A stretch of DNA of 35,919 nt from NCBI RefSeq assembly GCF_009696275.1, contig NZ_VUMI01000058.1, positions 1 through 35,919 of the forward strand, read 5' to 3'. The notes beneath the pieces are model-generated. The model ran no database searches. It worked only from the letters and a program-made list of their open reading frames with translations, and was not told where the DNA came from. A program made the translations under genes and the position numbers. This DNA comes from Eisenbergiella porci. GTDB taxonomy: Bacteria; Bacillota; Clostridia; Lachnospirales; Lachnospiraceae. Positions 9,901 through 32,567 of this stretch are shown here, one piece after another; position 1 is the first letter of the stretch, and each line of letters begins with the position of its first letter.

Positions 9901-9922
9901 CAACCCTCTGTTTTGTTTTTGG

Positions 9923-10107: not shown

Positions 10108-10128
10108 TGAATGAATGGAGGTGAGAAA

Positions 10129-12270: not shown

Positions 12271-12398
12271 ACCTTTACAGTAGCTTTTTCCCCCAATATT
12301 TGTTATACTTAATAAAATACAAATACGTCTTGTCAAAACATTCTGGATGTTCAAATAAACAACTGATTATGAATATGAAAAGGAGGAGATCTATTTTG

Positions 12399-17500: not shown

Positions 17501-18501
17501 TGTGCGTCCAGCTTTTGCACTTCCTTTTTCGCCTTGAACGGGGCCGGGGCCAGTATTTTGATGGCCTTTTCGCCTTTCTTTACATTGCGGTGAAAATCTT
17601 CCCGCCACTTGTTGTAGCCCGCCACAAGCTGTCCGCCCTGCATGGCGATCAGGAGGGTGTTGTTGAAGCTGTAACTGTGGAACTTGGACATAGTGGTGAG
17701 ATAGGCTTTGTAGCGTTCACTCTCGAAAAGCTCCTGTATGCCGGTTTCCAGCCTGTCGGTGATCTCTTTCATGCAGTCGGCGCTGTTCTGGCCGTTTAAG
17801 AGAATGGGGGTGACAGGCTGCGGGGCCTTTACGGGAGCTGCCGCCTCCGGCTGCACCTTGCTTTCCTCCCGCAGAATTTTCGGCGCAGGATAGGCCATCA
17901 CCCGGTATTCCTCCGGCACCGGCTGTCCCTCATGGACGCGCTGCCATTCGTCGCCGCTTTTTACCAGATAGCCATAATCGGTAAAAACACCATGCTCTGT
18001 GTTGGCAATATGCAGGCCAAAACGGGGCAGGAGAATCCCTGCTTTCCATTCCTCCGGCATACCCACCATGCCGGAACGGTTTAGATAGTAGTCGCCCAAC
18101 TGTCCTGTGCCGGTGACATCCGGCAAATGCACATAAAAGTCCACATTTTCGGGATAATCGATAATCTGGCCGATATTGTAAAAATCACTCTGCGGGCTTG
18201 TCAGGGCGGCGTTCAGCTCCGCAAGTTCGGCGGCGTCCAGCTTTTCCAATCTTGCAGCAAGGAAGTTTAGCTCATCCATGCCTGCGGACAGCACCATATC
18301 ACGGGGCAGCTTAATAGGTCGCGCCTGTGGGCTTCGATAGTCGTACAAGAAAAAGTCCTGCGGATTATCGGCACTGATCCCGATTTCCCGCAGGGCTGCT
18401 TGCAGTTTTTCGGTTGTGGTCGGCAGAGAAAACCATAGTCCTTCTTTGCCTTGCTCATAACGCTGTCGGTTATGAAGCAGTACGGAAAACACTTCGCTCA
18501 T
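14563..18501 (-). CDS. Large polyvalent anti-restriction protein (ArdA-like, ArdC, LPD, YodL, DUF4316)
   Basis: A 1312-aa multidomain protein probably sent with or expressed early from the transferred strand. Residues 1-200 are ArdA-like (FSVLLHNRQRYEQG, FFLYDYRSP). About 240-560 is an ArdC unit: ssDNA-binding-like SFNNTLLIAMQGG and a zinc-protease motif HEIAH (His440, Glu441, His444) with downstream EVQAESVAY. Later come an LPD16-like segment (YRLESGDYLYIQTSETGYD), LPD25-like VTILWSESPHLKDG, a YodL-like FSIYQVP region, a DUF4316-like RGRFYLTDRSREQMEAAGYGF, and a Lys-rich tail. ATG 18501 follows AAAGGAGCGACAA. Such proteins protect incoming DNA from host restriction. Domain borders are approximate. 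Confidence 0.85.
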   Translation of the reverse strand: MSEVFSVLLHNRQRYEQGKEGLWFSLPTTTEKLQAALREIGISADNPQDFFLYDYRSPQARPIKLPRDMVLSAGMDELNFLAARLEKLDAAELAELNAALTSPQSDFYNIGQIIDYPENVDFYVHLPDVTGTGQLGDYYLNRSGMVGMPEEWKAGILLPRFGLHIANTEHGVFTDYGYLVKSGDEWQRVHEGQPVPEEYRVMAYPAPKILREESKVQPEAAAPVKAPQPVTPILLNGQNSADCMKEITDRLETGIQELFESERYKAYLTTMSKFHSYSFNNTLLIAMQGGQLVAGYNKWREDFHRNVKKGEKAIKILAPAPFKAKKEVQKLDAQGRTVMGKDGKPVTEVQEIQVPAFKIVSVFDVSQTEGEPLPSIGVEELTGSVERYGEFFKALEQTSPVPIGFEDIPGGSHGYYHLTEKRIAIQEGMSELQTLKTAIHEIAHSKLHAIDPEAPAIEQADRPDSRTREVQAESVAYAVCQHYGLDTSDYSFGYVAGWSSGKDLKELKASLETIRATAHELITTIDGHLAQLQKERQAQQEQPQAAPLEQAAEQPDPDSVFSKLPPEQQQEMTDSVKAMLQTLIDADLKSTGEVSQGTKEAAQAQGFTIAGDGTLEQAEAPQEAAYRLESGDYLYIQTSETGYDYTLYGPDYKELDGGQLDNPDLSLVEAGKEILAIHERPAGAMEPLTGDGLDDFLEAAEQANAIPQSQAWNGIDGLLNGKPFMPEASPADRAAALIELAEKNAPHLGSEERQWIMAYAEAVGDTDKVMGLINRLCEQGYELQKGQMDSFVKSEIESEIAVANAQRQIAQNPAAEPVVTILWSESPHLKDGQQMPLHEAEAVFKELDSARRHDREQPGYTGHWYDKTKFRIDFTMQGQPDNYEGRQDFGDGDGSLIQHIRGYHEYYAQDESWKNHVLHHEGPEAWEADKAQRDMLLHEFVPYMELHCNLAAMEQEARRPLQSGETLTPEQTAYFNAVLDYVKECRPLLNQGQYHLPEAPQLADFDQSLQDYKKQIEAELEQEAAASGLTVEEYVASDYEAPAQPNFSIYQVPPGPEGRDLRYRSYEELQADGLSVDRKNYQLVYTAPLDKDTTLDEIYRRFNMEHPADYKGHSLSMGDIVVFRQDGKQTAYYVDEGADYRQVPEFFAQSEKQLTPDECMTGEQIQTPRGRFYLTDRSREQMEAAGYGFHHQSEDGRYLIMANGTRAFAIPAQQESHIKTAEMSTEQNYNMIDGMMNNAPSMEELEARAKAGEQISLLDVAEAAKAEAKKPKQTRKTTQKQKKPSIRAQLAAAKEEQKKKPPAREKSKEMEV

Positions 18502-18581
18502 TTGTCGCTCCTTTCTGAAAATGGCATAAGAAAAGCAGGAAACCTTTGAAAGATTTCCTGCCAAACCTATTATATGAAATA

Positions 18582-18795
18582 TCAATAGAATGGTGTTTTT
18601 AACATCTCTGAATAATATACGGGTTTATTCAATTCATATTTTTGCATTACATCACGCACTACATCTTCAAACCATTTTGGCGCATAAGGAGAAATGTACA
18701 CTGCTGAAATTAGCTTGTCAAGATTGACTGCTTTTTCTATACCGCTATGTGCTTGATGACTTGTGATAATGCTCATGTACGGTAAAGTATCACAA
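18582..18795 (-). pseudogene. DUF2971 gene, C-terminal fragment (cut by the nested element)
   Basis: About 70 codons ending VNLDKLISAVYISPYAPKWF...VYYSEMLKTPFY, the typical C-terminus of DUF2971 proteins. Its 5' end is cut at 18793-18795 (CAA) by the nested element. The other part is at 29523-30289. Joined at CAA the frame runs through as RAICDTLPYMSII, giving 326 aa. ATG 18776 could start a 64-aa product but has no good ribosome site. It lies 80 bp upstream of the polyvalent protein gene. Confidence 0.85.
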
Positions 18796-18878
18796 GAAAA
18801 TTATGTCGAATTGACAGCCGCCTCCGCTATACCGAATAAGGAAATAAAGAGTCCTCAAATTTTGCGCTACTAAATGAA

Positions 18879-18906
18879 GACGAGCGGAAGTAATCTCCCG
18901 CTCGTC
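18879..18906 (-). terminator. Likely terminator of the tet operon
   Basis: Arms 18879-18887 and 18898-18906 pair over 9 bp (GACGAGCGG/CCGCTCGTC), about 20 bp after the tet(40) stop. The T-run on the minus strand is weak (TTCATTTAG). Confidence 0.5.
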
Positions 18907-18927
18907 AGTAAACTTAACTATGCCATA

Positions 18928-20166
18928 TCAATCCCGCTTCTTTCCCGCCACCGGCACTAAGAACAGCGCGGGCAACAGCAGGAAAGCGGTACAGACCAGC
19001 CCCCAGGGTATGGACACCTGCTGGGCTACCAGCCCCACAATAGGCCCGCCGATGATCTGCCCGAAAGAGTCCAGCTGTCCGCTGGTGGAAAAGACTGTGG
19101 CGCGCATTTTCTCATCCACATGGTCGTTCATCCAGGCGGCCAGCACAGGCTCCTTGATGGTGCGCATAAGCCCCGCCAGCAGGAACACCAACAACATGAA
19201 CCAAAAGCTCCGCCCCACCGCGAAGAGAACCAGGCACAGGATATACCCGGCGCTGGTGGACATGACCACACTGGTTCGGCTGACAGTCCCTTTTTTCTCC
19301 ATGCGGGCGATGAGCAACTGAGAAGCCAGAATACCTAAGCCGCTGCCGATAAGACTGATAACACCGAACCAAGTGACGCTGTTCAGCGGCCCGATAACGG
19401 GTATTACCGTGTCATCCAGAAAATGAGCGGTGGAGAGCCGGTCAAAGCCTTCACTGGCAAGTCCCCCGCATAGTGTGATTGCTAAGAGCGCCAGCAACAC
19501 AGGTGCGCCTTTCACAAAGCCCAGGTTGAGCTTGAACAGGCAGACAAAGTCTTTAAGCAAGCCCTGCCGTTCCTCAATAGCAGGGGAGAAGTTGGTTTCT
19601 GGCATGATGCGACCCAACACCAGCCCCAACAACAAGCACAAACTGCCCCCCAAGATGAGAGGCATTTGCAGGTTTATGTTTCCCAGCAGTGTGCCCAGCA
19701 CCACGCCCAGAACGCCGCCGATTTGCCCCATTTGACTGCCCCGCAGGAACACCTTGTCTATGGGTTTGTCCTCTTCCTCCGAGGCAATCCACGCCTCCAG
19801 AGCGCCGGTGATGAAGGTATCACCGCAACCCCAGACAACCTGGGCCAGCAGAACCGGCGCGAACCACGGTAGCGCACCCTCCATCAGAAAGCCCAGGCCG
19901 TAGAGGAACATTCCAATCAGCACCGAGCGCCGACGGCTATACAAATCCGCCACCACACCGGTGGGTATCTCGAACAGAAAGCAGGAGGTCTCCTGAACCG
20001 TCCCTACCAGGACAAGCTGGAAAACATCCAGCTGCACCACCTCCAGGTGGTACACGATGGAAAGCACTGTGGACATAGAAACCGCCAGGGAACAGACAAA
20101 TCGGAACAGCAGGTAGACAGAATATGCCTTTGAATTTTTAGCAAACATGAAGTTACATTTCATCAT
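18928..20166 (-). CDS. tet(40): Tetracycline efflux MFS transporter Tet(40)
   Basis: A major-facilitator drug exporter with 12 predicted membrane segments. The loop-2/3 motif is EIPTGVVADLYSRRRSVLIG, and a charged central loop (about 185-215, ETNFSPAIEERQGLL) separates the halves. Starting at MFAKNSKAYSVYLL it is 406 aa, the length I recall for Tet(40), which is related to TetA(P). The frame begins six residues earlier at ATG 20166, where AGGATTAGAG gives a weak ribosome site; either start is possible. It sits 51 bp downstream of tet(O) with no promoter visible between, so it is probably cotranscribed. It exports tetracycline-Mg complexes in exchange for protons. Confidence 0.88.
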   Translation of the reverse strand: MMKCNFMFAKNSKAYSVYLLFRFVCSLAVSMSTVLSIVYHLEVVQLDVFQLVLVGTVQETSCFLFEIPTGVVADLYSRRRSVLIGMFLYGLGFLMEGALPWFAPVLLAQVVWGCGDTFITGALEAWIASEEEDKPIDKVFLRGSQMGQIGGVLGVVLGTLLGNINLQMPLILGGSLCLLLGLVLGRIMPETNFSPAIEERQGLLKDFVCLFKLNLGFVKGAPVLLALLAITLCGGLASEGFDRLSTAHFLDDTVIPVIGPLNSVTWFGVISLIGSGLGILASQLLIARMEKKGTVSRTSVVMSTSAGYILCLVLFAVGRSFWFMLLVFLLAGLMRTIKEPVLAAWMNDHVDEKMRATVFSTSGQLDSFGQIIGGPIVGLVAQQVSIPWGLVCTAFLLLPALFLVPVAGKKRD

Positions 20167-20217
20167 AATTAGTCTCTAATCCTTTCAAATCTCATTTTAT
20201 ATGACTTTTGCAAGCTG

Positions 20218-22137
20218 TTAAGCTAACTTGTGGAACATATGCCGAACCTTATCTATACGGCTATTCGGGCGGCGGGGTTGGCAAATAAATTTACCAATAG
20301 CTGGCTGGTATCCTTTTAACTCTGTCAAGCAGACTCCCTGCCCATTTGTGAAATAAGTTAAATCGTTCCTGTATTCTTGAATACATCTAGCAGGGATTTC
20401 TCCTTTCAGAATGACCTCGTCATTCTTTATCTGAGTACTTACAATATCTGCACAATACCTTGGAGCATCATGATACGCCCGTGAGAGATATTCCTGCGGT
20501 GCATAAATTTCAAAGTGGAGATATGGCTCTAATAGTTCTGTCCCTGCTTTTTTTAAAGCCTGCTCCAATACGATAGGGGAAAGCAGCCGAAAGTCTGCGG
20601 GGGTACTTACAGGACTATAATACAATCCATATTCAAAACAGATTTTACAGTCTGTCACTTTCCATCCATACAGCCCCTGCTCGCAGCCATAAAGAACCCC
20701 CTCCATAACCGCATTTTGGAACGATTGATTTAAATATCCAAGTGAAACTCTGCTTTCATACTGCACTCCGCTTCCAATAGGGAGCGGCTCTATGGACAAC
20801 CCGACAGAAGCCCAGAAAGGATTTGGCGGGACTTCTATGTGGATGGTATATTCTGCTTTTCTAAGCGGTCTTTCCATATATATAACAGTAGGCTCTTTTA
20901 TTTCTGCCTCCACATGATATTTTTCCTCAAGGATGGCACAAATGACTTCCATCTGCACATTCCCCAAAAAAGAAAGTATAATCTCATGCGTTGTAGTATC
21001 CACATAATATTTTAAAAGAGGGTCGCCATCTGAAATTTCTGTAAGTGCCCCAAGCAATATTTCCCGCTGTTCAGATTTCTTTACTGCAATCGTTGTTTGG
21101 AGCATAGGGAGAGGATTTTCAATAAATTTTCTCTGCGGCAACAGTATTTCGTTCCCCAAAATACTGTTTAGCTGCAAAACATCATTTGGTAAAATTACAA
21201 TATCACCAGAGCAGGCTGTATCGGATGAATATAATTCACCGTTTGTCGGAACACACATCTCTGTGATTTTTATTTTCTCTTTTTCAGATATTCTAATAAC
21301 ATCCCTCAAATGCAATGTTCCGCTATATATACGCACATAAACAAAACGCCGCCTTTTCTCTGAATATTCAATCTTAAAAACCTGCCCGCATAGTTCAGAT
21401 TGACCTTCAGGCGTTGATGAATAAAATTTACTGGCAATTACTTCTATAAGCTGCCGAATCCCCAGATTGTTTTTAGCGCTTCCGTGATAAACGGGAAATA
21501 ACGTTCCGTTTTGGAATCTCCTGTTTTCTTCCTGTTCCAGTTCTGACATTTTAAACGGTTTCCCTGACATATATTTCTCTAATAGTTCATCGTTTCCCAT
21601 AATTACCGCATCCCACTGTTCCATATCGTCATTGTCCGTTACATTTATATGGGGATGCTGCCCAACCTTTTGCTTCACTATAATTTCCGAAGAAAGCTTT
21701 GCTTTCATTTCCCGATATACCATTGGCAAATCAATCCCCTCTTGGTCAATTTTATTGATGAAAAAAATTGTCGGAATCTTCATTATCTGTAGTGCATGAA
21801 ACAGTATACGGGTCTGTGCCTGTATGCCATCCTTTGCAGAAACTAATAATACTGCTCCGTCTAATACGGATAAAGAACGGTATACTTCCGCCAAAAAATC
21901 CATATGGCCTGGCGTATCTATAATGTTGACTTTTACATCCTCCCACTGAAAAGATGTCACTGCTGTCTGGATAGTGATTCCCCTTTGACGCTCCAAATTC
22001 ATTGTATCTGTCCTTGTTGTGCCTTCATCTACGCTCCCTAGTTCTGCAATTGCACCACTGGTATACAATAAACTTTCCGTTAATGTTGTCTTTCCTGCGT
22101 CAACGTGAGCCAGAATGCCTAAGTTAATTATTTTCAT
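20218..22137 (-). CDS. tet(O): Ribosomal protection protein Tet(O)
   Basis: A 639-aa translational GTPase of the EF-G-like ribosome-protection class that dislodges tetracycline from the 30S subunit. G-motifs: AHVDAGKT (10-17), DTPGH (74-78), NKID (128-131). The C-terminal domain-IV/V region includes [19 protein letters not shown] and [12 protein letters not shown]. Length equals Tet(O). By memory the sequence reads as Tet(O) throughout, including the middle ([29 protein letters not shown]), not as a Tet(O/32/O) mosaic. ATG follows TAGGAGGAAAATCAC. Expression is controlled by the attenuator at 22172-22446. AT-richer than the surrounding element. Confidence 0.96.
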
Positions 22138-22171
22138 GTGATTTTCCTCCTATCAACACCCAAAAAAGGGC

Positions 22172-22210
22172 ATAAAAATACCCAGTGATAAATACTCCTA
22201 TCACTGGGTA
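22172..22210 (-). terminator. Attenuator terminator in the tet(O) leader
   Basis: A perfect 12-bp inverted repeat (22179-22190 with 22199-22210) is followed on the minus strand by ATTTTTATG. An upstream TACCCAGT (22290-22283 on the minus strand) duplicates the 5' arm and could pair with the 3' arm as an antiterminator. This is the architecture described for tet(M) of Tn916. Confidence 0.8.
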
Positions 22211-22361
22211 AATAACTCCAATAGCCCCAAAACACTTATATGTTTTCGGGCATATAAAATTACATGATAAAAGTATTCTTAAACTGGGTACAAAAAACTA
22301 AGCCCCATATTAAAAGTGAAACGGGACTGCTACTTTTTGTTCCCACTATCAAATTGACAGT

Positions 22362-22385
22362 TTATTTAAGAATACCTTGCCGCAT
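22362..22385 (-). CDS. Seven-codon leader peptide of tet(O)
   Basis: ATG 22385 to TAA 22362 encodes MRQGILK, with AAGGAGT about 10 nt upstream, directly after the promoter. The coding bases pair over 11 bp (22365-22375 with 22273-22283), so ribosome position on the leader could change the downstream fold. Tetracycline-slowed translation would favour read-through. Confidence 0.55.
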   Translation of the reverse strand: MRQGILK

Positions 22386-22417
22386 ATTTATTAACTCCTT
22401 GTATAATACTGAATCTA

Positions 22418-22446
22418 ATTATATTCCTTAACCCTTTATTTGTCAA
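22418..22446 (-). promoter_or_regulatory. Promoter of tet(O)-tet(40)
   Basis: Consensus TTGACA (22446-22441) and TATAAT (22423-22418) separated by exactly 17 bp on the minus strand; about 280 nt of leader separate it from tet(O). Confidence 0.9.
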
Positions 22447-22461
22447 GCTGACAAACTAAAT

Positions 22462-22842
22462 ATCCGAAATGCAACGATCAACGCAGCGAGGACACGGAGC
22501 AGGAAGCACAAAAGAGAAATATCCCTTGAATACCTCACAGACGAAAAGCACTACCCTTTAGGCACGACAGATGAATATTTCCAAGCCCCGGAGCCGGACG
22601 AGGAATACATACTTACCCTTTGCGGCGATACGGTCATTTTCAGCAGCGGTTTACTTGCGGAAGCCCTGTCACGGCTGGACGAACGGGAGCGGGAAATGAT
22701 TTACCTGTCCTTTTTCAAGCGTATTCCACAGCACGAAATTGGCAGACAGTACGGGCGCAGCCGCAGCACAGCGGGCTACCATATCCGAAAAGCCCTACGG
22801 CAGCTCCAAGCGGAAATGGAGGGAATGGCATATGAGAAATAA
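22462..22842 (+). pseudogene. 5'-truncated sigma-70-family factor
   Basis: An open frame of about 126 codons with no ATG, GTG or TTG before its middle. It reads RKHKREISLEYLTDEKHYPL, then SGLLAEALSRLDEREREMIY, then an HTH IPQHEIGRQYGRSRSTAGYH, ending QAEMEGMAYEK. It is a region-4-like sigma factor missing its N-terminus. The lost part coincides with the tet(O) promoter (22418-22446), so insertion of the tet block probably cut it. It overlaps the following HTH gene by 11 bp, as intact sigma/HTH pairs do. Confidence 0.75.
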
Positions 22843-23035
22843 TAGGCTTCTCCCCTATGAAACAATCGTCCAAGCCGCCAGCGGGGAGCCGGAAGCGGTG
22901 GGAACTGTATTGCAGTATTACCGCCGCCGCATACAATGTGCCGCCCGTGTGAATGGACGGGTAGACCAAGATACAGAGGACTACATCACCCAGACGCTTC
23001 TCACAGCTATTTTCAAGTTCCGCTTTGGGAGATAG
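22832..23035 (+). CDS. Helix-turn-helix protein, Orf8-like, of the nested element
   Basis: A 67-aa protein beginning MRNNRLLPYETIVQAASGEPEAV and containing VLQYYRRRIQ, with the same ...AA.G..EAV..VL..Y... pattern as the protein at 2818-3060. It starts inside the end of the sigma remnant, with GGAGGGAATGG upstream. It ends FKFRFGR, a little shorter than the 80-aa outer-ICE homologue. It belongs to the Orf8 group of element regulators; with its sigma partner truncated, its role may be lost. Confidence 0.75.
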   Translation: MRNNRLLPYETIVQAASGEPEAVGTVLQYYRRRIQCAARVNGRVDQDTEDYITQTLLTAIFKFRFGR

Positions 23036-23082
23036 CCCTACCGCCTACAACTGAATAACCGCCGCTTCGCCGGCAACCAGAA

Positions 23083-23119
23083 AGCAGTAAATCTATTCAA
23101 CAGATTTGCTGCTTTTTTT
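23083..23119 (+). terminator. Terminator after the sigma/HTH pair
   Basis: Arms 23083-23094 and 23102-23113 pair at 11 of 12 positions, followed by TTTTTT. Confidence 0.75.
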
Positions 23120-23243
23120 CGTTCCTGTTTGGCATTTTTGAAAATCCCCAGTATGAAAAAACAAAAGGGAAAATAGCCGCCGCAGTTGGCAAAATCCCTT
23201 ACTTATCCGTAGAGGGTATCAAAGAAAAAAATACTGCCATTGT

Positions 23244-23370
23244 CCGCCTATTCCGGCTTGCGTGGTGTTGTAGGGAATAGAGGGGAAATTCTAAAAATCT
23301 CCGTCCATTTTGCTTTGCGTGGTGTTGTAGGTAGTGAAAGGAAAATTTTCAAGATAAGCCGGAATAGCGG
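23244..23370. repeat. Inverted repeat enclosing two 17-bp direct repeats upstream of mobC
   Basis: Outer arms 23244-23259 and 23356-23370 are reverse complements but for one extra base. Inside lie two identical 17-mers, TTGCGTGGTGTTGTAGG, at 23258-23274 and 23315-23331. No gene is supported between 23036 and 23568. The block may be a MobC- or relaxase-binding part of oriT, or a structured RNA. Confidence 0.65.
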
Positions 23371-23504
23371 GTAGCAAAGCCCTTTTGAAACGTTTTGTTA
23401 GCGGAAAGGACGGGAGCCGGGGAACGCCGGAGTTTTTCAGAGCAAGATTCTACCGAGGTGCCAAAATTCGCTCTCCGCTTATTTTTGCCCCTGCGGGAAT
23501 CTTG

Positions 23505-23528
23505 TTGGGGAGTGCCTTCCCCAAACCC
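23505..23528 (+). other. oriT-like hairpin of the nested element
   Basis: TTGGGGA/TCCCCAA with a 6-nt loop followed by ACCC, 41 bp before mobC. It matches the hairpin at 10087-10107 in form and position. Confidence 0.5.
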
Positions 23529-23568
23529 TGCTATGCGCCCTGTCGGGCGAGAAAGGAGGTCACAGACC

Positions 23569-23967
23569 ATGCGAAAGAAATACAATACGCCCCACCGCCG
23601 TCATGTGGTAAAGACCCGCATGACCGATGAAGAATACGCCGACTTCACCGGGCGGCTGGCGGCTTATGAAATCAGCCAGTCCGAGTTTATCCGGCAAGCC
23701 ATACGGAAAGCGACCATACGCCCCATTGTCACCGTTTCCCCGGTCAATGACGGGCTGCTTGCCGCCCTCTCCAAGCTCACGGCAGAGTACGGGAAAATCG
23801 GCGGCAACTTAAACCAGATTGCCCGGAGCCTGAACGAATACGGAAGCCCCTACCGGGGGCTGGAAAAGGAAGTGCGGGGAGCCGCCGCCGACCTTGCCGC
23901 CTTGAAGTTTGAAGTCTTGCAGAAAGTAGGTGAAGCCGTTGGCGATACTCAAACATATCAGCTCTAA
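23569..23967 (+). CDS. mobC: MobC-type relaxosome protein of the nested element
   Basis: A 132-aa protein. VVKTRMTDEEYADFTGRLAA and SQSEFIRQAIRKA form the DNA-binding N-terminus. KIGGNLNQIARSLNEYG (about 81-97) is the MobC core motif. ATG 23569 is chosen because AAAGGAGG lies about 10 nt upstream; the frame is open far upstream but non-coding. It overlaps the relaxase gene by about 29 bp. Clearly different in sequence from the mobC at 10129. Confidence 0.9.
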   Translation: MRKKYNTPHRRHVVKTRMTDEEYADFTGRLAAYEISQSEFIRQAIRKATIRPIVTVSPVNDGLLAALSKLTAEYGKIGGNLNQIARSLNEYGSPYRGLEKEVRGAAADLAALKFEVLQKVGEAVGDTQTYQL

Positions 23968-25561
23968 AAATGCCAACTACGGGGACGCTGAAAAATACCT
24001 CACATTCGAGCATGACGAGTTTACCATGAAGCCCACCCTTGACGCAGACGGGCGGCTCATACCGAGGGTAGACTACCGCATATCCTCTCTGAATTGTGGC
24101 GGGGAGGATTTTGCCGTTGCCTGTATGCGCTCCAATCTCCGCTACGGCAAGAACCAGAAACGGGAGGACGTAAAGAGCCACCACTACATCATCAGCTTTG
24201 ACCCACGGGACGGCCCGGACAACGGCTTGACCGTTGATCGGGCGCAGGAGCTGGGCGAGAAGTTCTGCGCCGAGCATTTCCCCGGACACCAGGCCCTTGT
24301 CTGCACCCACCCGGACGGACACAGCCACACCGAAAATATCCATGTGCATATCGTCATTAACAGTCTGCGGATTGCGGAGGTTCCCATGCTGCCCCACATG
24401 GACAGGCCAGCGGACAGGAAAGCAGGCTGCAAGCACCGCTGTACGGACGCAGCTATGAACTATCTGAAAGCCGAAGTCATGGAGATGTGCCACAGCGAGG
24501 GGCTTTACCAGATAGACCTTTTGAACGGCAGCAAAGAACGCATTACCGAGCGTGAGTATTGGGCGCAGAAGAAAGGACAGGCTGCCCTTGACAGAGCCAA
24601 CGCCCCTATTGCTGCGGACGGTATCGCGCCCCGGCAGACCAAGTTTGAAACGGATAAGGCGAAGCTGCGCCGGACTATCCGGGAAGCCCTTGCCGCTGCT
24701 TCCGGCTTTGATGAGTTTGCCGCCCTGCTTCTCCGGCATGGTGTGACCGTCAAGGAGAGCCGGGGGCGGCTAAGTTACCTCACGCCGGACAGGACGAAGC
24801 CAATTACCGCCCGGAAGCTGGGGGACGATTTTGACCGGGCTGCTGTCCTCTCCGTTTTGGAGCAGAACGCCGCCAGAGCCGCCGAAAAACCCGCAGCCAT
24901 AGCGGAATACCCCGGCAGTATCAAAGACCGCTTACGGACGAAAAAAGAAGCGAAAAACGCCCCGAACAATGACGCTGTACAGCGCATGGTAGACATAGCC
25001 GCCAAGCGAGCCGAGGGGAAAGGACGGGGCTATGAGAAGTGGGCGACCATGCACAACCTCAAACAGATGTCGGCTACCCTCATGCTCTACCAGCAGTATG
25101 GCTTTTCTTCCCCGGACGAGCTGGACGCTGCCATTTCCGCAGCCAACACCGCCACGCAGGAGAGCCTTGCCGGACTGAAAGGGCTGGAAGCCGCTATCCG
25201 GGAGAAAAAGGAATTGCAGCGCAACCTTTTGGGCTATATCGGCACGAAGCCCGCCCGTGACGGTCTGAAAGCGCAGAAATCGGAGAAAGCCCGGAGAGCC
25301 TACCGGGAACAGCACGAAAGCGATTTTATCATAGCGGACACAGCCGCCCGTTATTTCCGGGAGCATGGAATAACCAAGCTGCCAGCCAGCAAAGCCCTGC
25401 AAAGGGAGATTGAGCAGCTTACCGTCCAGAAGAACGCCGGATATAACGACTACCGGGAGAAACGCCAGCGGGCGCAGGAGCTTCAGACAGTCAGACGCAA
25501 TATCGACCAGATTTTAAGGGGCGCACCGAGCCAGCAGAAAAAGCGTGAACAGGAGCGTTAA
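23939..25561 (+). CDS. MOBP-type relaxase of the nested element
   Basis: A relaxase of about 540 aa. The N-terminus AILKHISSKNANYGDAEKYL carries the probable catalytic Tyr region. The metal site is in CTHPDGHSHTENIHVHIVIN. Downstream there are an RKLGDDFDR segment, then MHNLKQMSATLMLYQQYGF and a long charged coiled-coil tail ending in PSQQKKREQER. TTG 23939 is preferred, since TAGGTGA lies 5-6 nt before it and the product starts like other family members; GTG 23930 is the alternative. It acts at the adjacent oriT-like site, so the nested element can be mobilised by its own relaxase. Confidence 0.93.
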   Translation: MAILKHISSKNANYGDAEKYLTFEHDEFTMKPTLDADGRLIPRVDYRISSLNCGGEDFAVACMRSNLRYGKNQKREDVKSHHYIISFDPRDGPDNGLTVDRAQELGEKFCAEHFPGHQALVCTHPDGHSHTENIHVHIVINSLRIAEVPMLPHMDRPADRKAGCKHRCTDAAMNYLKAEVMEMCHSEGLYQIDLLNGSKERITEREYWAQKKGQAALDRANAPIAADGIAPRQTKFETDKAKLRRTIREALAAASGFDEFAALLLRHGVTVKESRGRLSYLTPDRTKPITARKLGDDFDRAAVLSVLEQNAARAAEKPAAIAEYPGSIKDRLRTKKEAKNAPNNDAVQRMVDIAAKRAEGKGRGYEKWATMHNLKQMSATLMLYQQYGFSSPDELDAAISAANTATQESLAGLKGLEAAIREKKELQRNLLGYIGTKPARDGLKAQKSEKARRAYREQHESDFIIADTAARYFREHGITKLPASKALQREIEQLTVQKNAGYNDYREKRQRAQELQTVRRNIDQILRGAPSQQKKREQER

Positions 25562-25569
25562 AGACCGCC

Positions 25570-25684
25570 CCGAAATGATACCGAAACCCTACAAAAATAC
25601 AGGTATGATATGAACCCTTACCGCAATACTCCCCGACTTCCAAACGGGGCTTACAGGGCAGAAAAAGCCCGAAAATGATACCGA
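25570..25684. repeat. Pair of iteron-like direct repeats before the replication genes
   Basis: CCGAAATGATACCGA (25570-25584) and CCGAAAATGATACCGA (25669-25684) differ by one inserted A, with similar flanks (AAC, TACA.AAAAT) on the right. The gene-free stretch between the relaxase and the replication operon could hold a replication origin. Confidence 0.5.
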
Positions 25685-25747
25685 GAACATACAGAAAATG
25701 CCCCCTATCCCGCTACACCGATAGGAACGGCAGAAAGGAGCTTACCA

Positions 25748-25939
25748 TTGCCGAGAATGAGCAAGAAGCGGCGGCTGGAATGGTCTTTCTTCCTCAACCA
25801 CCGCAACCGTATCACTTACAACGACCTATGCCGGGGCTGCACCCGTGACTGCAAACAGAGCTTCCGGGCGGTTATCATACTATGCCCTCGCTATTATTCC
25901 AAACGCTGGAAAAAGGAGGACGCAGCCTATGGCAGATAA
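25748..25939 (+). CDS. Small basic protein with a Cys motif
   Basis: A 63-aa product from TTG 25748, preceded by AAAGGAG at 8 nt. It starts MPRMSKKRRLEW and contains CRGCTRDCKQSF and a basic C-terminus. It overlaps the next gene by 11 bp. In place and Cys content it recalls the VLP-type gene after the first relaxase, but the match is weak. Function unknown. Confidence 0.55.
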   Translation: MPRMSKKRRLEWSFFLNHRNRITYNDLCRGCTRDCKQSFRAVIILCPRYYSKRWKKEDAAYGR

Positions 25940-26687
25940 CCGCAAATATTACTACCTCAAGCTGAAAGAGAGCTATTTTGACGATGATGCAATCGTTCTG
26001 CTGGAAAGTATGCAGGACGGCGTTATCTATTCCAACATTCTCTTGAAGCTGTACTTGAAATCGCTGAAAAACGGCGGGAAATTGCAGCTTGACGAGAATA
26101 TCCCCTACACCGCCCAGATGATTGCGACCATTACCCGCCAGCAGGTAGGTACCGTAGAGAGAGCTTTGAAAATCTTTATGAAGCTGGGGCTTGTGGAGCC
26201 TTTGCCAAGCGGCGCACTCTACATGAGCAACATTGAGCTTTTAATCGGCCAGTCCTCTACCGAGGGGGAGCGCAAGCGCAGGGCGCGGCTGGCTTTGCAG
26301 GAACAAAAAGCCCTGCCGCAGACAGGGGCGGACAAATGTCCACCATATCGAGCGGACATTTGTCCACCAGAGATAGAGATAGAGAAAGAGATAGATATAG
26401 AAATAGAAAAAGAGAGAGAGTTAGAAACGGGACACCCCGCCCCCGCCGCCTATGGCAGATACCACAATGTCATTCTTTCCGATACGGAGCTTGACGGGCT
26501 GAAAACAGAGCTTCCCGGCAAGTGGGAGTATTACATTGACCGCCTATCCTGCCATATCGCTTCCAGCGGGAGGAAATACAAGAGCCATGCAGCCACGATT
26601 TTCAAGTGGGCGCAGGAGGACGCAGCCAAGAAAGCCCCGAAAAAGGGCATACCCGATTATACCTGTAAGGAGGGCGAGAGCTTATGA
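25929..26687 (+). CDS. Phage replisome organizer-like replication protein
   Basis: A 252-aa protein. MADNRKYYYLKLKESYFDDDAIVLLESMQDG and the helices following (LLKLYLKSLKNGGKLQL, TITRQQVGTVERALKIF) form the winged-helix N-terminal domain of phage replisome organizers. A highly acidic/basic linker (about 150-166, IEIEKEIDIEIEKE) leads to a C-terminal DnaD-like region (FKWAQEDAAKK). ATG 25929 follows AAGGAGG; the frame extends upstream to 25845 inside the Cys-motif gene. It overlaps the DnaC-like gene by ATGA. Together they probably recruit the host helicase to replicate the excised circle. Confidence 0.85.
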   Translation: MADNRKYYYLKLKESYFDDDAIVLLESMQDGVIYSNILLKLYLKSLKNGGKLQLDENIPYTAQMIATITRQQVGTVERALKIFMKLGLVEPLPSGALYMSNIELLIGQSSTEGERKRRARLALQEQKALPQTGADKCPPYRADICPPEIEIEKEIDIEIEKERELETGHPAPAAYGRYHNVILSDTELDGLKTELPGKWEYYIDRLSCHIASSGRKYKSHAATIFKWAQEDAAKKAPKKGIPDYTCKEGESL

Positions 26688-27541
26688 CGAATGGATTTGA
26701 TGAAATGATTTTGAATATGACCGACACCACGCCGGAGCCGGAGGACTACACCGGCGAGGACGGGCTTTTATACTGCGGGAAGTGCCACAAGCCCAAAGAG
26801 GGCTATTTCCCCAAAGAAACCGCCGCATGGCTGGGGCGTGACCGCCACCCGGCAGAATGTGACTGCCAGCGGGCAGAGCGTGAGGAACGGGAAGCCGCAG
26901 AGAAACAGCGCAGTCACCTTGAAACTGTCGAGCGGTTGAAGCGGCGGGGCTTTACAGACCCGGCTATGCAGGGCTGGACGTTTGAGAACGACAACGGCAA
27001 GTGCCCGCAAATGGAACACGCCCATTTCTATGTGGAGAACTGGGAAACCATGAAAGAGCGCAACATTGGCTATCTGCTATGGGGCGGCGTTGGCACAGGC
27101 AAGAGCTATTTTGCGGGCTGTATCGCAAATGCCCTTATGGAGCGTGAAATCCCCGTGTGCATGACAAACTTTGCATTGATATTGGGTGACCTTGCCGCCA
27201 GCTTTGAGGGCAGGAATGAATATATCTCCCGACTTTGCAGCTTCCCGCTGCTTATCCTTGACGATTTTGGAATGGAACGGGGAACGGAATACGGCTTAGA
27301 GCAGGTCTACAACGTGATTGACAGCCGTTACCGCAGCGGCAGGCCGCTGATCGTCACGACTAATCTCACGCTGGAGGACTTGCAGCACCCGGAGGACACC
27401 GCCCACGCCCGCATTTATGACCGTCTGATTGAAATGTGTTCTCCTGTCCGCTTTACCGGGAGCAACTTCCGAAAAGCCACGGCGCAGGAGAAAATGGGAC
27501 AACTGAAAAAGCTGATGAACAGAAAGGAGAGCCGCCTATGA
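26684..27541 (+). CDS. DnaC-like helicase-loader ATPase
   Basis: A 285-aa protein. An N-terminal zinc-binding part (CGKCHKPKEGYF, CDCQRAE) is followed by an AAA+ domain with Walker A WGGVGTGKS (133-141), Walker B LLILDDFGMER (about 188-198), sensor motif VTTNLTLEDL and Arg-finger region RIYDRLIEMC. This is the IstB/DnaC type. It overlaps both neighbours by 4 bp (ATGA), so replication protein, loader and TnpW form one translational unit. Alternative: an IstB transposition helper, but no IstA is present. Confidence 0.92.
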   Translation: MTNGFDEMILNMTDTTPEPEDYTGEDGLLYCGKCHKPKEGYFPKETAAWLGRDRHPAECDCQRAEREEREAAEKQRSHLETVERLKRRGFTDPAMQGWTFENDNGKCPQMEHAHFYVENWETMKERNIGYLLWGGVGTGKSYFAGCIANALMEREIPVCMTNFALILGDLAASFEGRNEYISRLCSFPLLILDDFGMERGTEYGLEQVYNVIDSRYRSGRPLIVTTNLTLEDLQHPEDTAHARIYDRLIEMCSPVRFTGSNFRKATAQEKMGQLKKLMNRKESRL

Positions 27542-27720
27542 CCAACACCCCAAAGAATGACCGCAGCACCCGCCGCCCGGATTGCGTGACGGAAATCCGC
27601 ATAGGTAATTCTGTCCTTGTCGTTTCCGGCTATTTCAAGCAGGACACCACCGCCACCGCCGCCGATAAAATGCTGAAAGTGCTGGAAGCGGAAGCTGCTA
27701 CACAAAAATCGGCAATTTGA
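27538..27720 (+). CDS. tnpW: Transposon-encoded TnpW-family protein
   Basis: A 60-aa protein with VTEIRIGNSVLVVSGYFKQD followed by TATAADKMLKVLEAEA, the pattern of small TnpW proteins encoded beside tnpX-type serine recombinases in Tn4451-like elements. ATGA overlap with the DnaC-like gene; ribosome site AAAGGAG. Function is not established. Confidence 0.8.
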   Translation: MTNTPKNDRSTRRPDCVTEIRIGNSVLVVSGYFKQDTTATAADKMLKVLEAEAATQKSAI

Positions 27721-27749
27721 CGGGACGTAAAGAAGCAGAAAGGACTGTA

Positions 27750-27802
27750 CAGCCAGCCCCGGCGTGTGGTATGATAGTCATACGGAATAGTGGGGCTGGC
27801 TG
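27750..27802 (+). promoter_or_regulatory. Nested palindromes in the recombinase promoter region
   Basis: A perfect 11-bp inverted repeat CAGCCAGCCCC (27750-27760) and GGGGCTGGCTG (27792-27802) encloses a second palindrome TATGATAGTCATA (27770-27782), whose left half forms an extended -10 (TGTGGTATGAT). A repressor site controlling recombinase transcription is likely. Confidence 0.6.
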
Positions 27803-27820
27803 TCGGAAATGGAGGACACT

Positions 27821-29431
27821 ATGTTAAGACAGACCACCCGAAACCTTATTACCGCCCTTTATCCGAGATTATCCCACGAGGACGAGCTGCAAGGTGAGAG
27901 CAATTCTATTTCAAACCAGAAGCGTATTCTTGAAACCTATGCGAAGCAGAACGGCTTTTCCAATCTGCAATGGTACACAGATGACGGTTATTCTGGGGCG
28001 AACTTCCAAAGACCCGGTTTTCAAGCCATGCTTGCGGACATTGAAGCCGGAAAAGTCGGCACCGTTATCGTCAAGGATATGTCACGGTTAGGGCGAAACT
28101 ATCTGCAAGTGGGAATGTATACGGAAATGATTTTCCCACAGAAAGGCGTCCGCTTTATCGCTATCAATGACGGAGTGGACAGCGCACAGGGCGACAATGA
28201 TTTTGCCCCTCTGCGGAACATTTTTAACGAATGGCTGGTGAGAGATACGAGCAAGAAAATCAAAGCAGTAAAACGGTCTAAGGGTATGAGCGGGAAGCCC
28301 GTCACGAGCAAACCCGTATACGGCTACTTTATGGACGAGGACGAAAATTTTATCATTGACGGGGAAGCCGCCCCTGTTGTGCGGCAGATTTACAGCTTGT
28401 GCCTTGCCGGGAACGGGCCGACCAAGATAGCCCGTATGCTCACAGAGCAGGAGATCCCCACGCCGGGAACGCTGGAATACCGTCGGACGGGAAGCACCCG
28501 CCGCTACCACCCCGGCTATGAGTGCAAGTGGGCGACCAATACCGTGGTACATATCCTTGAAAACAGGGAGTACACGGGCTGTCTGGTAAACTTCAAGACG
28601 GAGAAGCCGTCCTACAAGACCAAGCACAGCGTAGAGAACCCCATTGAGAAACAGGCGATTTTCGAGAACCACCATGAGCCTATCATTGACACCCAGATGT
28701 GGGAGCGTGTGCAGGAGTTACGCAAGCAGCGCAAACGCCCGAACCGCTATGATGAAGTGGGCTTATTCTCCGGCATACTCTTTTGTGCCGACTGCGGCAG
28801 CGTCCTTTACCAGCAGCGTTACCAGAACGCCACCCGCAAGCAGGATTGTTATATCTGCGGGAGCTACAAGAAGCGTACCCGTGACTGTACGGCGCACTTT
28901 ATCCGCACCGACCTGTTGACCGCCGGAGTGACCGACAATCTGCGGAAAGTCACCAGCTATGCAGCGAAGCACGAAGCCCGGTTTATGAAGCTGCTGATCG
29001 AGCAGAACGAGGACGGGGGCAAGCGCAGGAACGCCGCAAGGAAAAAGGAGCTGGAAGCCGCCGAGAAGCGTATCAGCGAGTTATCCGCTATCTTCAAGCG
29101 GCTGTATGAGGACAGCGTGACCGGGCGCATTTCAGACGAGCGTTTCACGGAGCTGTCGGCAGACTATGAAGCCGAGCAGAAAGAACTGAAAGAGAGAGCC
29201 GCCGCTATCCGGGCAGAGCTTTCCAAAGCGCAGGAAGCCACGGTAAACGCAGAAAAGTTTATGAATGTTGTCCGCAAGTACACCAGCTTTGAAGAACTTA
29301 CCCCTACCCTTTTGCGTGAGTTTGTGGAGAAAATCGTTGTGCATGAGTGCAGCTATGACGAGAACGGCACACGCAGACAGGACATTGATATTTATTACTC
29401 TTTCGTTGGCAAGGTAGACCTGCCCGAATGA
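27821..29431 (+). CDS. TnpX/TndX-like large serine recombinase
   Basis: A 536-aa recombinase that would excise and integrate the nested element. Catalytic domain: LYPRLSHEDE with probable Ser18, VIVKDMSRLGRNYLQVG, and an INDGVDS segment. It is followed by the recombinase domain (KPVYGYF, PTKIARMLTEQEIPTPG), a zinc ribbon (FCADCGSVLYQQ, YICGSYKK..DC), a coiled coil, and a C-terminal DUF4368-like end (LREFVEKIVVHECSYDENGTRRQDIDIYYSFVG). ATG 27821 is chosen over ATG 27809 because GGAGG lies 5 nt upstream. It is the last gene before the right junction (29520-29522), the normal position in Tn4451/Tn5397-type elements. It is unlike the recombinase at 356. Confidence 0.95.
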   Translation: MLRQTTRNLITALYPRLSHEDELQGESNSISNQKRILETYAKQNGFSNLQWYTDDGYSGANFQRPGFQAMLADIEAGKVGTVIVKDMSRLGRNYLQVGMYTEMIFPQKGVRFIAINDGVDSAQGDNDFAPLRNIFNEWLVRDTSKKIKAVKRSKGMSGKPVTSKPVYGYFMDEDENFIIDGEAAPVVRQIYSLCLAGNGPTKIARMLTEQEIPTPGTLEYRRTGSTRRYHPGYECKWATNTVVHILENREYTGCLVNFKTEKPSYKTKHSVENPIEKQAIFENHHEPIIDTQMWERVQELRKQRKRPNRYDEVGLFSGILFCADCGSVLYQQRYQNATRKQDCYICGSYKKRTRDCTAHFIRTDLLTAGVTDNLRKVTSYAAKHEARFMKLLIEQNEDGGKRRNAARKKELEAAEKRISELSAIFKRLYEDSVTGRISDERFTELSADYEAEQKELKERAAAIRAELSKAQEATVNAEKFMNVVRKYTSFEELTPTLLREFVEKIVVHECSYDENGTRRQDIDIYYSFVGKVDLPE

Positions 29432-29439
29432 CCGCCCGA

Positions 29440-29472
29440 CCTATCCGGCGCAATGCGCAAACGCCGGATAGG
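29440..29472 (+). terminator. Terminator after the recombinase
   Basis: A perfect 11-bp stem (29440-29450 with 29462-29472), 9 bp after the stop. ATTTTTT follows about 10 bp further on, inside the element end. Confidence 0.6.
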
Positions 29473-29522
29473 AACGGCAAAATTTTTTACACTTCTACTA
29501 CTTCTTTATCACACATCAGCAA

Positions 29523-30289
29523 ATAGCGCGGACTTCTCTCTCGTGTTCAAATGCTTTTCGTTTATACCAGAACGAACCATTTACGGAAGAAAATCTTTTG
29601 GAAAAATCAATATATTTGACTTTCCCAATTTCTATTGTGGGGTCTTTGTCAAGAGCCTCATACAACTGTTGGTATGTAGTTTGAATTGCAAGTGCATTGT
29701 TCACATTTGTTGAGTACAATTTCCACATTGCTTCTGATTCAGATTCGTTACAATGCCAACAACTTATAAATGTATGTTTTCTTCGGGCATTTCCACTGGC
29801 GTTCAACTCGGACAACAAACGTGTTGTATTTTCCTCAATGTATTCGTCTGTTAAGTCTTCTGGTTTCATGCCGGGCGCGGTTTGAATTGCATCTCTAAAA
29901 AAATCAAGATAAAATGCGTCCCATTTTTCTTTCCGTTCCAATGTGCCTTTTGCACCCTCAAATATATCTTCAAATGATTCCGCAGATGCAAAATATAGTG
30001 ACTTTTTACCAATCATTGAAAGGAACTTGCTTAAATCCATGTAACGCCAAAGTTTAGATTCTGGCGAAACTTTTTCATATTCTAGTTTCGTCCAATGATA
30101 ACGAATTACGGTTTCTGATAGCAAATATGCGCAATCATCACAAAGAACAACAGGATTTCTTTCTGTATCATATCCCAAATGCGCACACATACCATTTTGA
30201 AATTTTCTGCTACAATTCGTACAGGCATCTCTATGCTCGTTGTAAAACATATCTAATTCACGGGTGTGCCTATGTGTCATTTCCTGCAT
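29523..30289 (-). pseudogene. DUF2971 gene, N-terminal fragment (cut by the nested element)
   Basis: About 256 codons. The N-terminus has a zinc-finger-like CTNCSRKFQNGMC...CDDC; the DUF2971 core follows (LWRYMDLSKFLSMIGKKSLYFA, FEDIFEG, HTFISCWHCNESESEAMWKLY, IGKVKYIDFS, FEHEREVRAI). The natural frame then stops at TGA 29516 inside the inserted element. The missing C-terminus is at 18582-18795. ATG 30289 follows AGAGGGGGAAGTT. Family function is unknown; the context, between topB and the anti-restriction gene of an ICE, suggests cargo. Probably inactive while the element is inserted, unless precise excision occurs. Confidence 0.88.
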
Positions 30290-30476: not shown

Positions 30477-32567
30477 TTAGTTTTTGCCCCTCTGTTCCAC
30501 GCGGTAGTTCACATACTTGCCGCCGGTATCGGCCAAAAGCACCGTCCCGTCATAGGTTTTGCCGGTTTTCATGGAGCGCAGGCCCTTTACCTTTGCTTTT
30601 CCGTCTTTGAGCAGCGCGGCGGCGATCTTCGGGGTGAACGCCTTGCCCCGTTCCTCAAAAAATCGGTCATTCTTCCACATGACAAACTGGCAGGCCCGGT
30701 TTCCGCAGTAGTAGTTCTTTTTGCCCTCGTAGACGCTTTCCCCGCAGCGCGGACATTTGCCGATAACCACACGCTCGGTTTGAAACAACTTCTGCGCGTC
30801 CTCGCTAATCTGCGAATATCGGGAAATCAGGCTCCTTGTCATTTCTGCAATGCCAGCCATGAAGCCCTCCAGGTCGGCCTGCCCCTTGGCAATGGCCGTC
30901 AGCTCCGTTTCCCACTGTGCCGTAAGCTGGGGAGAGGTCAGCGCCTCCGGCAGCACGCAGGCAAGGTTGTGGCCGTCCTTGGTGGGAAGTAGCTGTTTGC
31001 CCCTGCGCTCCACAAAGCCCATCTGCACCAGTTTTTCTAAGATGGAGGCGCGGGTGGCCGGGGTTCCCAATCCCTGCCTCTCGGCGTCCTCCGGCAGATC
31101 GTCCGCACCGGCGCGCTCCATAGCGGAAAGCAGAGTATCTTCGGTGTAGGATTTTGGCGGTGCTGTGAAATGCTCGGTGACGGCGGCAGTTACCTTGTCA
31201 AAGGTTTGGCCCTCGGTGATCTCCGGCAGTTCACGCGCAGGCTCCGGGGCGGTGTCGTCGGCGTCTGTTTTGAACGACGCCTTAAAGCGGCGGTCAAGCT
31301 CTTTCCAGCCGGGAGTGAGAATGGTCTTTCCTTTGGCGGTAAAGGTGTTCCCGGCACAGGTGAATGTAGCGGTGACAGCTTCATATACATGGGGCGCAGC
31401 CACGGCGCACAGCAGCTTGCAGCACACAAGGGACAGCAGTTTCTTTTCCCCCTCGGCCAGCCCATCAAAGCCTTTCTGCACAAATTCCATCGTCGGGACA
31501 ATGGCGTGGTGGTCGCTTACCTTTTTGCTGTTCAGCACCCGGCCAAACTGCGAGGACAGGTCAAGCCCCTTTGCAAAGGGAAGCAGCGGCCACAGGCCGG
31601 ACACAAGGCTTTCCGCCGTTGGCAGCATATCATCGGTCAAATACTGGCTGTCGGTGCGGGGATAGGTCAGCAGCTTCTTTTCATAGAGCTGCTGTGCATA
31701 GTCAAGGGTCTGCTTGGCGGTAAATCCAAACAGGCGGTTTGCCTCCCGCTGCAAGGTGGTGAGGTCATAGAGGCGGGGCGGCTGCTCCGTCCTTTTCTCC
31801 CGTATTACCGATACACAAACGGCCTGCGCCGTTTCACAGGCAGCTTTCAGCGCCTTGGCGTCGTCTGCGTTTCCCATGCGTTCACTGGCCGCCTCCATGC
31901 CGCCCGCCGCGATCTGGACGATGTGATATTTCTCTTTCTGGAAGCTGCTGATCTTGGCCTCCCGGTCAACCAGCATTTTCAGGGTCGGCGTCTGGACACG
32001 GCCCACGGTCAGGGTCTTGTGGTAGAGGATGGAGAACAGCCGGGTGGCGTTGATCCCCACCAGCCAATCCGCCTGCGCCCGGCAAAGGGCCGACTGATAC
32101 AGGTTATCATAATCGGCTCCCGGTTTCAGATGGGCGAAGCCGTCCCTGATAGCCGCGTCCTCCATGCTGGAAATCCAAAGGCGCTGAAACGGTTTCTTGC
32201 AGCCTGCCATCTGGTAGACGAAACGGAAAATCAATTCCCCCTCGCGTCCGGCGTCGGTGGCGCACACAAGGCCGGTGACATCGGGGCGCTCCATCAAAGA
32301 ACGCAGGGTGTCAAACTGCTTTTTCTTAGCGTCGGGAATGATGTACTGCCACTCCTGCGGCACAATCGGCAGGTCGTCATAGCGCCATTTTTTGAAACGC
32401 TCGTCATAAGTCCCGGCATCGGCAAGGGAAACAAGGTGGCCGATACACCAGCTCACCAGATAGCCGTTCCCCTCCATGTAGCCGTCCTGTTTCTTGTCCG
32501 CGCCGATCACGCCCGCAATGCTGCGGGCGACGCTTGGTTTCTCTGCAATTACTAACTGATAGCTCAT
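30477..32567 (-). CDS. topB: DNA topoisomerase III of the ICE
   Basis: A 696-aa type IA topoisomerase. The Toprim domain has LVIAEKPSVARSI (Glu9) and DAGREGE (105-111). The active-site tyrosine is Tyr302 in LLTYPRTDSQYL. DHHAIVPT is conserved, and the C-terminal zinc finger is CPRCGESVYEGKKNYYC..RACQF (about 635-660). ATG 32567 overlaps the DUF4366 stop (ATGA). In Tn1549-like ICEs this gene lies in the same transfer operon and probably resolves or assists processing of the transferred strand. Confidence 0.96.
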   Translation of the reverse strand: MSYQLVIAEKPSVARSIAGVIGADKKQDGYMEGNGYLVSWCIGHLVSLADAGTYDERFKKWRYDDLPIVPQEWQYIIPDAKKKQFDTLRSLMERPDVTGLVCATDAGREGELIFRFVYQMAGCKKPFQRLWISSMEDAAIRDGFAHLKPGADYDNLYQSALCRAQADWLVGINATRLFSILYHKTLTVGRVQTPTLKMLVDREAKISSFQKEKYHIVQIAAGGMEAASERMGNADDAKALKAACETAQAVCVSVIREKRTEQPPRLYDLTTLQREANRLFGFTAKQTLDYAQQLYEKKLLTYPRTDSQYLTDDMLPTAESLVSGLWPLLPFAKGLDLSSQFGRVLNSKKVSDHHAIVPTMEFVQKGFDGLAEGEKKLLSLVCCKLLCAVAAPHVYEAVTATFTCAGNTFTAKGKTILTPGWKELDRRFKASFKTDADDTAPEPARELPEITEGQTFDKVTAAVTEHFTAPPKSYTEDTLLSAMERAGADDLPEDAERQGLGTPATRASILEKLVQMGFVERRGKQLLPTKDGHNLACVLPEALTSPQLTAQWETELTAIAKGQADLEGFMAGIAEMTRSLISRYSQISEDAQKLFQTERVVIGKCPRCGESVYEGKKNYYCGNRACQFVMWKNDRFFEERGKAFTPKIAAALLKDGKAKVKGLRSMKTGKTYDGTVLLADTGGKYVNYRVEQRGKN

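What the first reader, a model, noticed from the sequence alone, without database searches (positions are those of the whole stretch)
18793..29522. Nested element splits a DUF2971 gene; both ends defined by in-frame reconstruction
The DUF2971 N-terminus (30289 down to 29523) and C-terminus (18792 down to 18582) are 10.7 kb apart. Joining them at CAA, present at both junctions, gives a continuous 326-codon frame across RAI-C-DTLPY. This dates the insertion as later than the gene and fixes the element's length. TnpX and TndX are known to use a GA core; here the shared bases are CAA, so the target preference may differ.
Basis: partly seen in the sequence, partly recalled or inferred. Interest (0 to 1): 0.8.

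Follow-up and report, generated by a model that had tools for sequence, protein, structure and literature searches.

The report
Hitchhiking resistance element splits cargo gene

Summary
Four natural intact homologues of the split gene are 8-9 codons shorter here than the proposed join. The best, L014 (about 94% DNA identity), matches the window up to 18770 on one side and from 29522 on the other. The element is 18770-29521 with an AA crossover at 18768-18769 and 29522-29523. One plasmid and three phage matches also begin at 18768. Of 51 insertions of this recombinase lineage with both ends found (window included), 39 lie in maff2, 11 elsewhere (window among them), 1 is mixed. Most features tested fit IME_Rho_tet (PMC12904643, 2026); its canonical methyltransferase was not seen here. 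So: a known kind of element at a secondary site. By-product: non-maff2 flanks share C at -8 (12/12), G at +8 (12/15), A at -12 (10/12), T at +12 (11/15) around AA; the window has all four, but the held-out test was too small to settle this. The split gene is DUF2971-like and its intact homologues match a phage-defence-candidate model.

The parts
18770..29521 (.). nested integrative and mobilizable element (10,752 bp; 10,754 with one copy of the AA core)
18768..18769 (.). left copy of the AA crossover dinucleotide
   Evidence: one plasmid and three phage matches also start at 18768
29522..29523 (.). right copy of the AA crossover dinucleotide
18770..18790 (+). 5' terminal inverted repeat
   Evidence: 15 of 21 bases identical to the reverse complement of the 3' repeat
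29501..29521 (-). 3' terminal inverted repeat; ends 90 bp after the recombinase stop codon
18928..20166 (-). tet(40) tetracycline efflux gene
   Evidence: NCBIfam NF000049, E 3.5e-277, over cut-off
20218..22137 (-). tet(O)-type ribosomal protection gene
   Evidence: NCBIfam NF033148 over cut-off; 100% identity to tet(O) records over 2,305 bp
22739..23035 (+). helix-turn-helix protein (HTH_16)
   Evidence: Pfam PF12645, E 2.2e-15
23395..23967 (+). MobC/NikA-like relaxosome accessory protein
   Evidence: Pfam
23930..25561 (+). MobA/VirD2-like relaxase
   Evidence: Pfam PF03432
25845..26687 (+). phage-type replisome organiser
   Evidence: Pfam PF09681
26684..27541 (+). DnaC/IstB-like ATPase
   Evidence: Pfam PF01695
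27436..27720 (+). TnpW-like small protein
   Evidence: Pfam PF14202, E 8.3e-10
27809..29431 (+). large serine recombinase with DUF4368 tail, TnpX-like
   Evidence: Pfam; closest solved chain TnpX
29524..30289 (-). N-terminal part of the split DUF2971-like gene
18582..18767 (-). C-terminal part of the split gene
14563..18585 (-). outer element: ArdA/ArdC/LPD multidomain protein
   Evidence: Pfam
30477..32567 (-). outer element: topoisomerase
   Evidence: Pfam PF01131
32564..33346 (-). outer element: CD1107-like mobile element protein
   Evidence: Pfam PF14283
33593..35548 (-). outer element: NlpC/P60 protein
   Evidence: Pfam PF00877

Best explanation
The 18770-29521 segment is a member of the IME_Rho_tet group of integrative and mobilizable elements, of the tet(O)-type plus tet(40) layout. 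Its TnpX-like serine recombinase inserted it by a conservative AA-for-AA crossover into a DUF2971-like cargo gene of what looks like an integrative conjugative element (ICE). This is a secondary site: the usual site of the lineage is the maff2 gene of such ICEs. Shown by sequence: the ends, the AA core, the terminal repeats, the natural uninterrupted gene, the maff2 preference of relatives, and the four sparse bases shared by most off-target flanks. Inferred: that this recombinase made the insertion, that the outer DNA is an ICE, that the element still excises and circularises, that its relaxase uses the transfer machinery of a resident ICE, and that the split gene has lost its function.
For: A natural uninterrupted gene fits both flanks with a 3-bp overlap. 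Matches in four records (H1 plasmid; H21, H22, H24 phages) start at 18768. The right end is conserved among relatives of 84% identity and more. AA stands at 34 of 34 left ends and 41 of 41 right ends with no AA demanded, and at 7 of 7 left and 13 of 13 right ends in later loci. 39 of 51 insertions with both ends lie in maff2, and split and full Maff2 copies are present in the window's own genome. Layout, distance from recombinase stop to 3' end and fifth base of the 3' repeat agree with PMC12904643. The window has all four sparse target bases at the corrected core; the two CAA-based alternatives have two of four and none.
Against: The window site does not score as maff2-like on a position matrix: 17% of control AA positions score at least as high, and the aligned site in L014 ranks 82 of 232. 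The four-base pattern was derived partly from the window; without it the pattern still holds, but three held-out sites gave C 2/2, A 1/2, G 2/3, T 1/3, too few to decide. L014 is not the same ICE context (the gene with about 30 bp upstream and 5 bp downstream aligns) and lacks the G at +8. The methyltransferase of the canonical IME_Rho_tet was not seen in this element, and the R. hominis reference was not compared directly. Few relatives share the tet genes: 2 of 63 loci hold this tet(40) and 0 of 63 this ribosomal protection gene by megablast, which misses other alleles. No conjugation ATPase of the outer element was identified in the window.
Confidence: 0.92

Rival explanations
1. One reading: the element is 18793-29522 with a CAA core and the gene is 326 codons long.
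For: The frame stays open with three shared bases (one search counts this junction among three such).
Against: Four of four intact homologues lack the 8-9 extra codons; the bases from 18770 on belong to the terminal repeat conserved in relatives; four records start at 18768.
Confidence: 0.02
2. The element reached this gene because the site resembles maff2 along its length.
For: Some other secondary sites do score high on the maff2 matrix (L078, L073, L075).
Against: The window site does not: 17% of control positions score as high, and the aligned L014 site ranks 82 of 232. Only four sparse positions stand out.
Confidence: 0.12
3. The junctions are an assembly artefact.
For: The window is one contig of a 149-contig assembly with three further close copies of the recombinase (85-95%).
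Against: Both junctions carry the terminal repeat and AA of the lineage, and both flanks belong to one natural gene.
Confidence: 0.03
4. Another serine recombinase, such as the one at 356-2194, made the insertion in trans.
For: The genome holds many: 41 matches to this recombinase at E <= 0.001.
Against: The terminal repeats and core are those found next to this recombinase in relatives.
Confidence: 0.03

Closest known systems
IME_Rho_tet (PMC12904643, 2026; passages and sections 13, 15, 19, 20 seen)
   Same: relaxase, MobC and serine recombinase; inverted terminal repeats whose variable fifth base fits; 3' end 90 bp after the recombinase stop (paper: 81-90); tet(O)-type gene reversed with tet(40); maff2 as the most frequent target; similar length (10,752 against 10,695 bp)
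   Different: this copy lies in a DUF2971-like gene; no methyltransferase ORF was seen, and a replisome organiser and DnaC-like gene are present that the paper's description as read does not name; the words consensus, dinucleotide, crossover, core, attB and DUF2971 do not occur in the paper's main text
IME_ScoC232_maff2_site1 and other streptococcal IMEs in maff2, traG or snf2 (PMC5357655 passages and sections 14, 25; PMC5704250 passages)
   Same: serine integrase, replisome organiser plus DnaC (as listed for IME_ScoC232_maff2_site1), insertion inside a conserved ICE gene
   Different: streptococcal; sequences not compared here
Tn4451/Tn4453 (TnpX) and Tn5397 (TndX)
   Same: TnpX-like recombinase and a TnpW-like protein; a preferred site, and elsewhere sites sharing a central dinucleotide, as reported for TndX (PMC4430133 passages)
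H1 Monoglobus plasmid and H21, H22, H24 Streptococcus phage copies
   Same: left end at 18768 and the two tet genes
   Different: only the tet side of the element matches; the recombinase is not in the match

Membership tests
IME_Rho_tet | relaxase, MobC and serine recombinase in one element | tested here: met
   Pfam matches
IME_Rho_tet | inverted terminal repeats of 21 bp, fifth base of the 3' repeat G, C or T by recombinase cluster | tested here: met
   15 of 21 identical, fifth base G in the window; relatives show G, C and T variants and one A, against text read
IME_Rho_tet | 3' end 81-90 bp after the recombinase stop codon | tested here: met
   stop ends at 29431, element ends at 29521: 90 bp (text)
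IME_Rho_tet | most tet(O)-type copies have the ribosomal protection gene reversed and followed by tet(40) | tested here: met
   text
IME_Rho_tet | maff2 as the most frequent integration target | tested here: met
   39 of 51 insertions of the recombinase lineage; this copy itself is not in maff2
IME_Rho_tet | class I SAM-dependent methyltransferase of the canonical copy | tested here: inconclusive
   no ORF of that kind seen in the element, but not every small ORF was scanned, and the paper's tet(O)-type copies are described as peculiarly organised
IME_Rho_tet | sequence similarity to the reference element of R. hominis A2-183 | not tested
   reference record not fetched
Tn4451/Tn5397 group (TnpX/TndX) | TnpX-like large serine recombinase | tested here: met
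   2mhc_A TnpX, E 4.6e-49 over residues 12-125
Tn4451/Tn5397 group (TnpX/TndX) | GA crossover dinucleotide | tested here: not met
   AA at 34 of 34 left and 41 of 41 right ends
DUF2971 (split gene) | match over the Pfam PF11185 cut-off | tested here: not met
   11.5-17.4 bits against a cut-off of 22 in four intact homologues; 6 of 10 listed plasmid homologues annotated DUF2971
PDC-S31 phage-defence candidate (split gene) | match to the PADLOC model | tested here: met
   PDLC04993 E 5.5e-23 (L014) and 6.5e-22 (L015), intact homologues; defence function untested

The most novel reading that the evidence does not exclude
The recombinase reads a sparse, dyad-symmetric target, A-N3-C-N7-AA-N7-G-N3-T. 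maff2 is its best natural match, but any good match serves. Off-target landing in cargo genes such as this one would put resistance genes on an ICE without breaking maff2, and could cost the ICE a phage-defence gene.
Probability: 0.5. Interest if true: 0.45.

Novelty: new member of a known kind. Interest (0 to 1): 0.32.

Why it matters
It corrects how the ends of this element should be read: by natural empty sites and relatives, not by frame. It places a tetracycline-resistance element in a recently described family. The off-target sites give a testable target rule for a recombinase lineage that helps spread tetracycline resistance among gut bacteria.

Tried and rejected
In-frame joining as proof of ends: rejected because three 3-base junctions near the true ends are in frame. 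Whole-length maff2 likeness as the reason for landing here: not supported. Pfam DUF2971 as a formal assignment: below cut-off. An empty site in the same ICE: not found; L014 shares only the gene with about 30 bp upstream and 5 bp downstream. The N half in IMG/VR: no relative confirmed. The N half in plasmids: 22 records, all under 60% identity. A held-out search in two families gave no new insertion; two searches gave 13 new loci that were used, of which 3 had non-maff2 flanks.

Dropped rows and weak points: 6 of the 48 non-window places, 2 of the 14 new places and 3 of the 8 loci (33-45% identity) were not used. In one search the maff2 comparison returned nothing for any row and was replaced by the scoring, where shuffled flanks reached 26; the right-flank threshold was 27, and L084 scored exactly 27 (its left flank scored 145); L153 scored 25 and counts as non-maff2. 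The left-end search demanded AA, so those calls are no evidence for AA; searches did not demand it. The notebook entry speaks of 24 in-frame element bases; the right figure for the proposed join is 27 extra bases.
Full report
What was checked. The window is one contig (C104) of an unnamed 6.1 Mb, 149-contig genome. The segment between the two halves of the split gene carries tet(40) and a tet(O)-type ribosomal protection gene, a helix-turn-helix protein and a TnpW-like protein, a MobC-like protein, a relaxase, a replisome organiser, a DnaC-like ATPase and a large serine recombinase. Because resistance genes lie beside the broken gene, its halves were compared apart with natural intact genes. 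The outer genes (ArdA/ArdC protein, topoisomerase, CD1107-like protein, NlpC/P60 protein) look like an ICE; that is an inference, as no conjugation ATPase was identified in the window.

The ends. Four natural uninterrupted homologues were found: L014 (94.5% over the N half), L015 (67%), L012 (61%) and L013 (62%). With L014 the DNA match of the C side runs to 18770 and that of the N side begins at 29522, overlapping by three bases. The left end therefore lies at 18768-18770, not at 18793-18795; the right end moves by 2 bases only. Four records give the same left end: the plasmid match H1 and the phage matches H21, H22 and H24 begin at query position 168, which is window 18768. In-frame reading could not have settled this: 72 in-frame, stop-free cut pairs lie within 60 bp into the element, 6 with three shared bases, which are three separate junctions.

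The family. Relatives of the recombinase at 80-100% identity were collected from the window's own genome, from 397, 392 and 391 sampled genomes (the samples overlap) and from IMG/VR, and their surroundings fetched. In the rows with at least 84% identity the right ends are alike up to the window's 29521 and then diverge. AA precedes the left repeat in 34 of 34 left ends and follows the right repeat in 41 of 41 right ends, with no AA demanded; later loci gave 7 of 7 and 13 of 13. Of 69 insertions, 51 have both ends: 39 lie in maff2, 11 in other sequence (the window included) and 1 is mixed; of 18 with the right end only, 14 are maff2-like. The window's own genome has 15 Pfam Maff2 matches, 7 of them full-length, so unoccupied copies of the usual target are present there.

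Comparison with what is known. PMC12904643 (passages and sections 13, 15, 19 and 20 seen) describes IME_Rho_tet: 116 of 256 (45%) matched sites in MAFF2 genes, 3' ends 81-90 bp after the recombinase stop, a fifth base of the 3' repeat that follows the recombinase cluster, and most tet(O)-type copies with the gene reversed and followed by tet(40). The window agrees with these: 90 bp from stop to end, repeats alike at 15 of 21 bases, fifth base G, reversed tet(O)-type gene with tet(40). It does not show the methyltransferase of the canonical copy, and the reference sequence itself was not compared. The search for the family name found this one paper. Insertion of IMEs in maff2 was reported earlier for streptococci (PMC5357655; PMC5704250). 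The recombinase's closest solved chain is TnpX. TndX is reported to have preferred sites in C. difficile and, in B. subtilis, none apart from a central GA (PMC4430133 passages); here the dinucleotide is AA.

Why this gene. On a matrix from 26 maff2 sites the window site is unremarkable: 17% of 12,448 control AA positions score at least as high, and the aligned site in L014 ranks 82 of 232. Testing 200 base-and-position combinations on the non-maff2 flanks (10 left, 12 right) gave C at -8 (10 of 10; corrected p 1.4e-5), G at +8 (10 of 12; 6.9e-4), A at -12 (9 of 10; 0.032) and T at +12 (10 of 12; 0.055); all four hold in 34 of 34 maff2 sites, where protein coding may keep them. The four are placed symmetrically about AA. 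The rule was written down before new data were sought. The new non-maff2 sites gave C 2 of 2, A 1 of 2, G 2 of 3 and T 1 of 3: in line for C and G, undecided for A and T. Together: C 12 of 12, A 10 of 12, G 12 of 15, T 11 of 15. The corrected core in the window has all four; the two CAA-based alternatives have two of four and none of four.

The split gene. No Pfam family passes its cut-off for the halves or for four intact homologues. Of the 10 listed plasmid homologues (28-37% identity), 6 are annotated DUF2971. Two intact homologues match PADLOC's candidate family PDC-S31 at 5.5e-23 and 6.5e-22, so the broken gene may be a phage-defence candidate; that function is untested.

Verdict. The nested insertion is real and younger than the gene. 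The element belongs to a recently published kind, at a secondary site. The sparse target rule is the one part that may be new: the words consensus, dinucleotide, crossover, core, attB and DUF2971 do not occur in the main text of PMC12904643; its supplements were not read.

Noticed in passing
356-12121: A second set of mobility genes (serine recombinase 356-2194, MobC/NikA-like 10111-10458, relaxase 10419-11753) around an ABC transporter and a two-component system looks like another mobilizable element; in L017 the stretches matching 2432-2506 and 11928-12094 lie next to each other.
   Followed up: partly
12207-14263: A methyltransferase-like protein (PADLOC C3a159) and a DUF1848 protein (Pfam; PADLOC RTasDUF1848) lie side by side: possible defence cargo.
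   Followed up: no
14563-18585: One 1,340-residue protein joins ArdA, ArdC N-terminal, M78 peptidase, YodL and several LPD domains.
   Followed up: no
L016 10001-10249 and L017 10001-10147: Only the first 83 and 49 residues of the split gene's homologue match in these two named genomes: remnants or separate short genes.
   Followed up: no
L122, L063, L075 (loci): By eye, the secondary insertions of relatives lie in varied open frames (EAL-like, AraC-like, GTPase-like); no family search was made on them.
   Followed up: partly
whole genome of the window: Rich in such elements: 41 matches to the recombinase at E <= 0.001 and 15 Maff2 matches.
   Followed up: no
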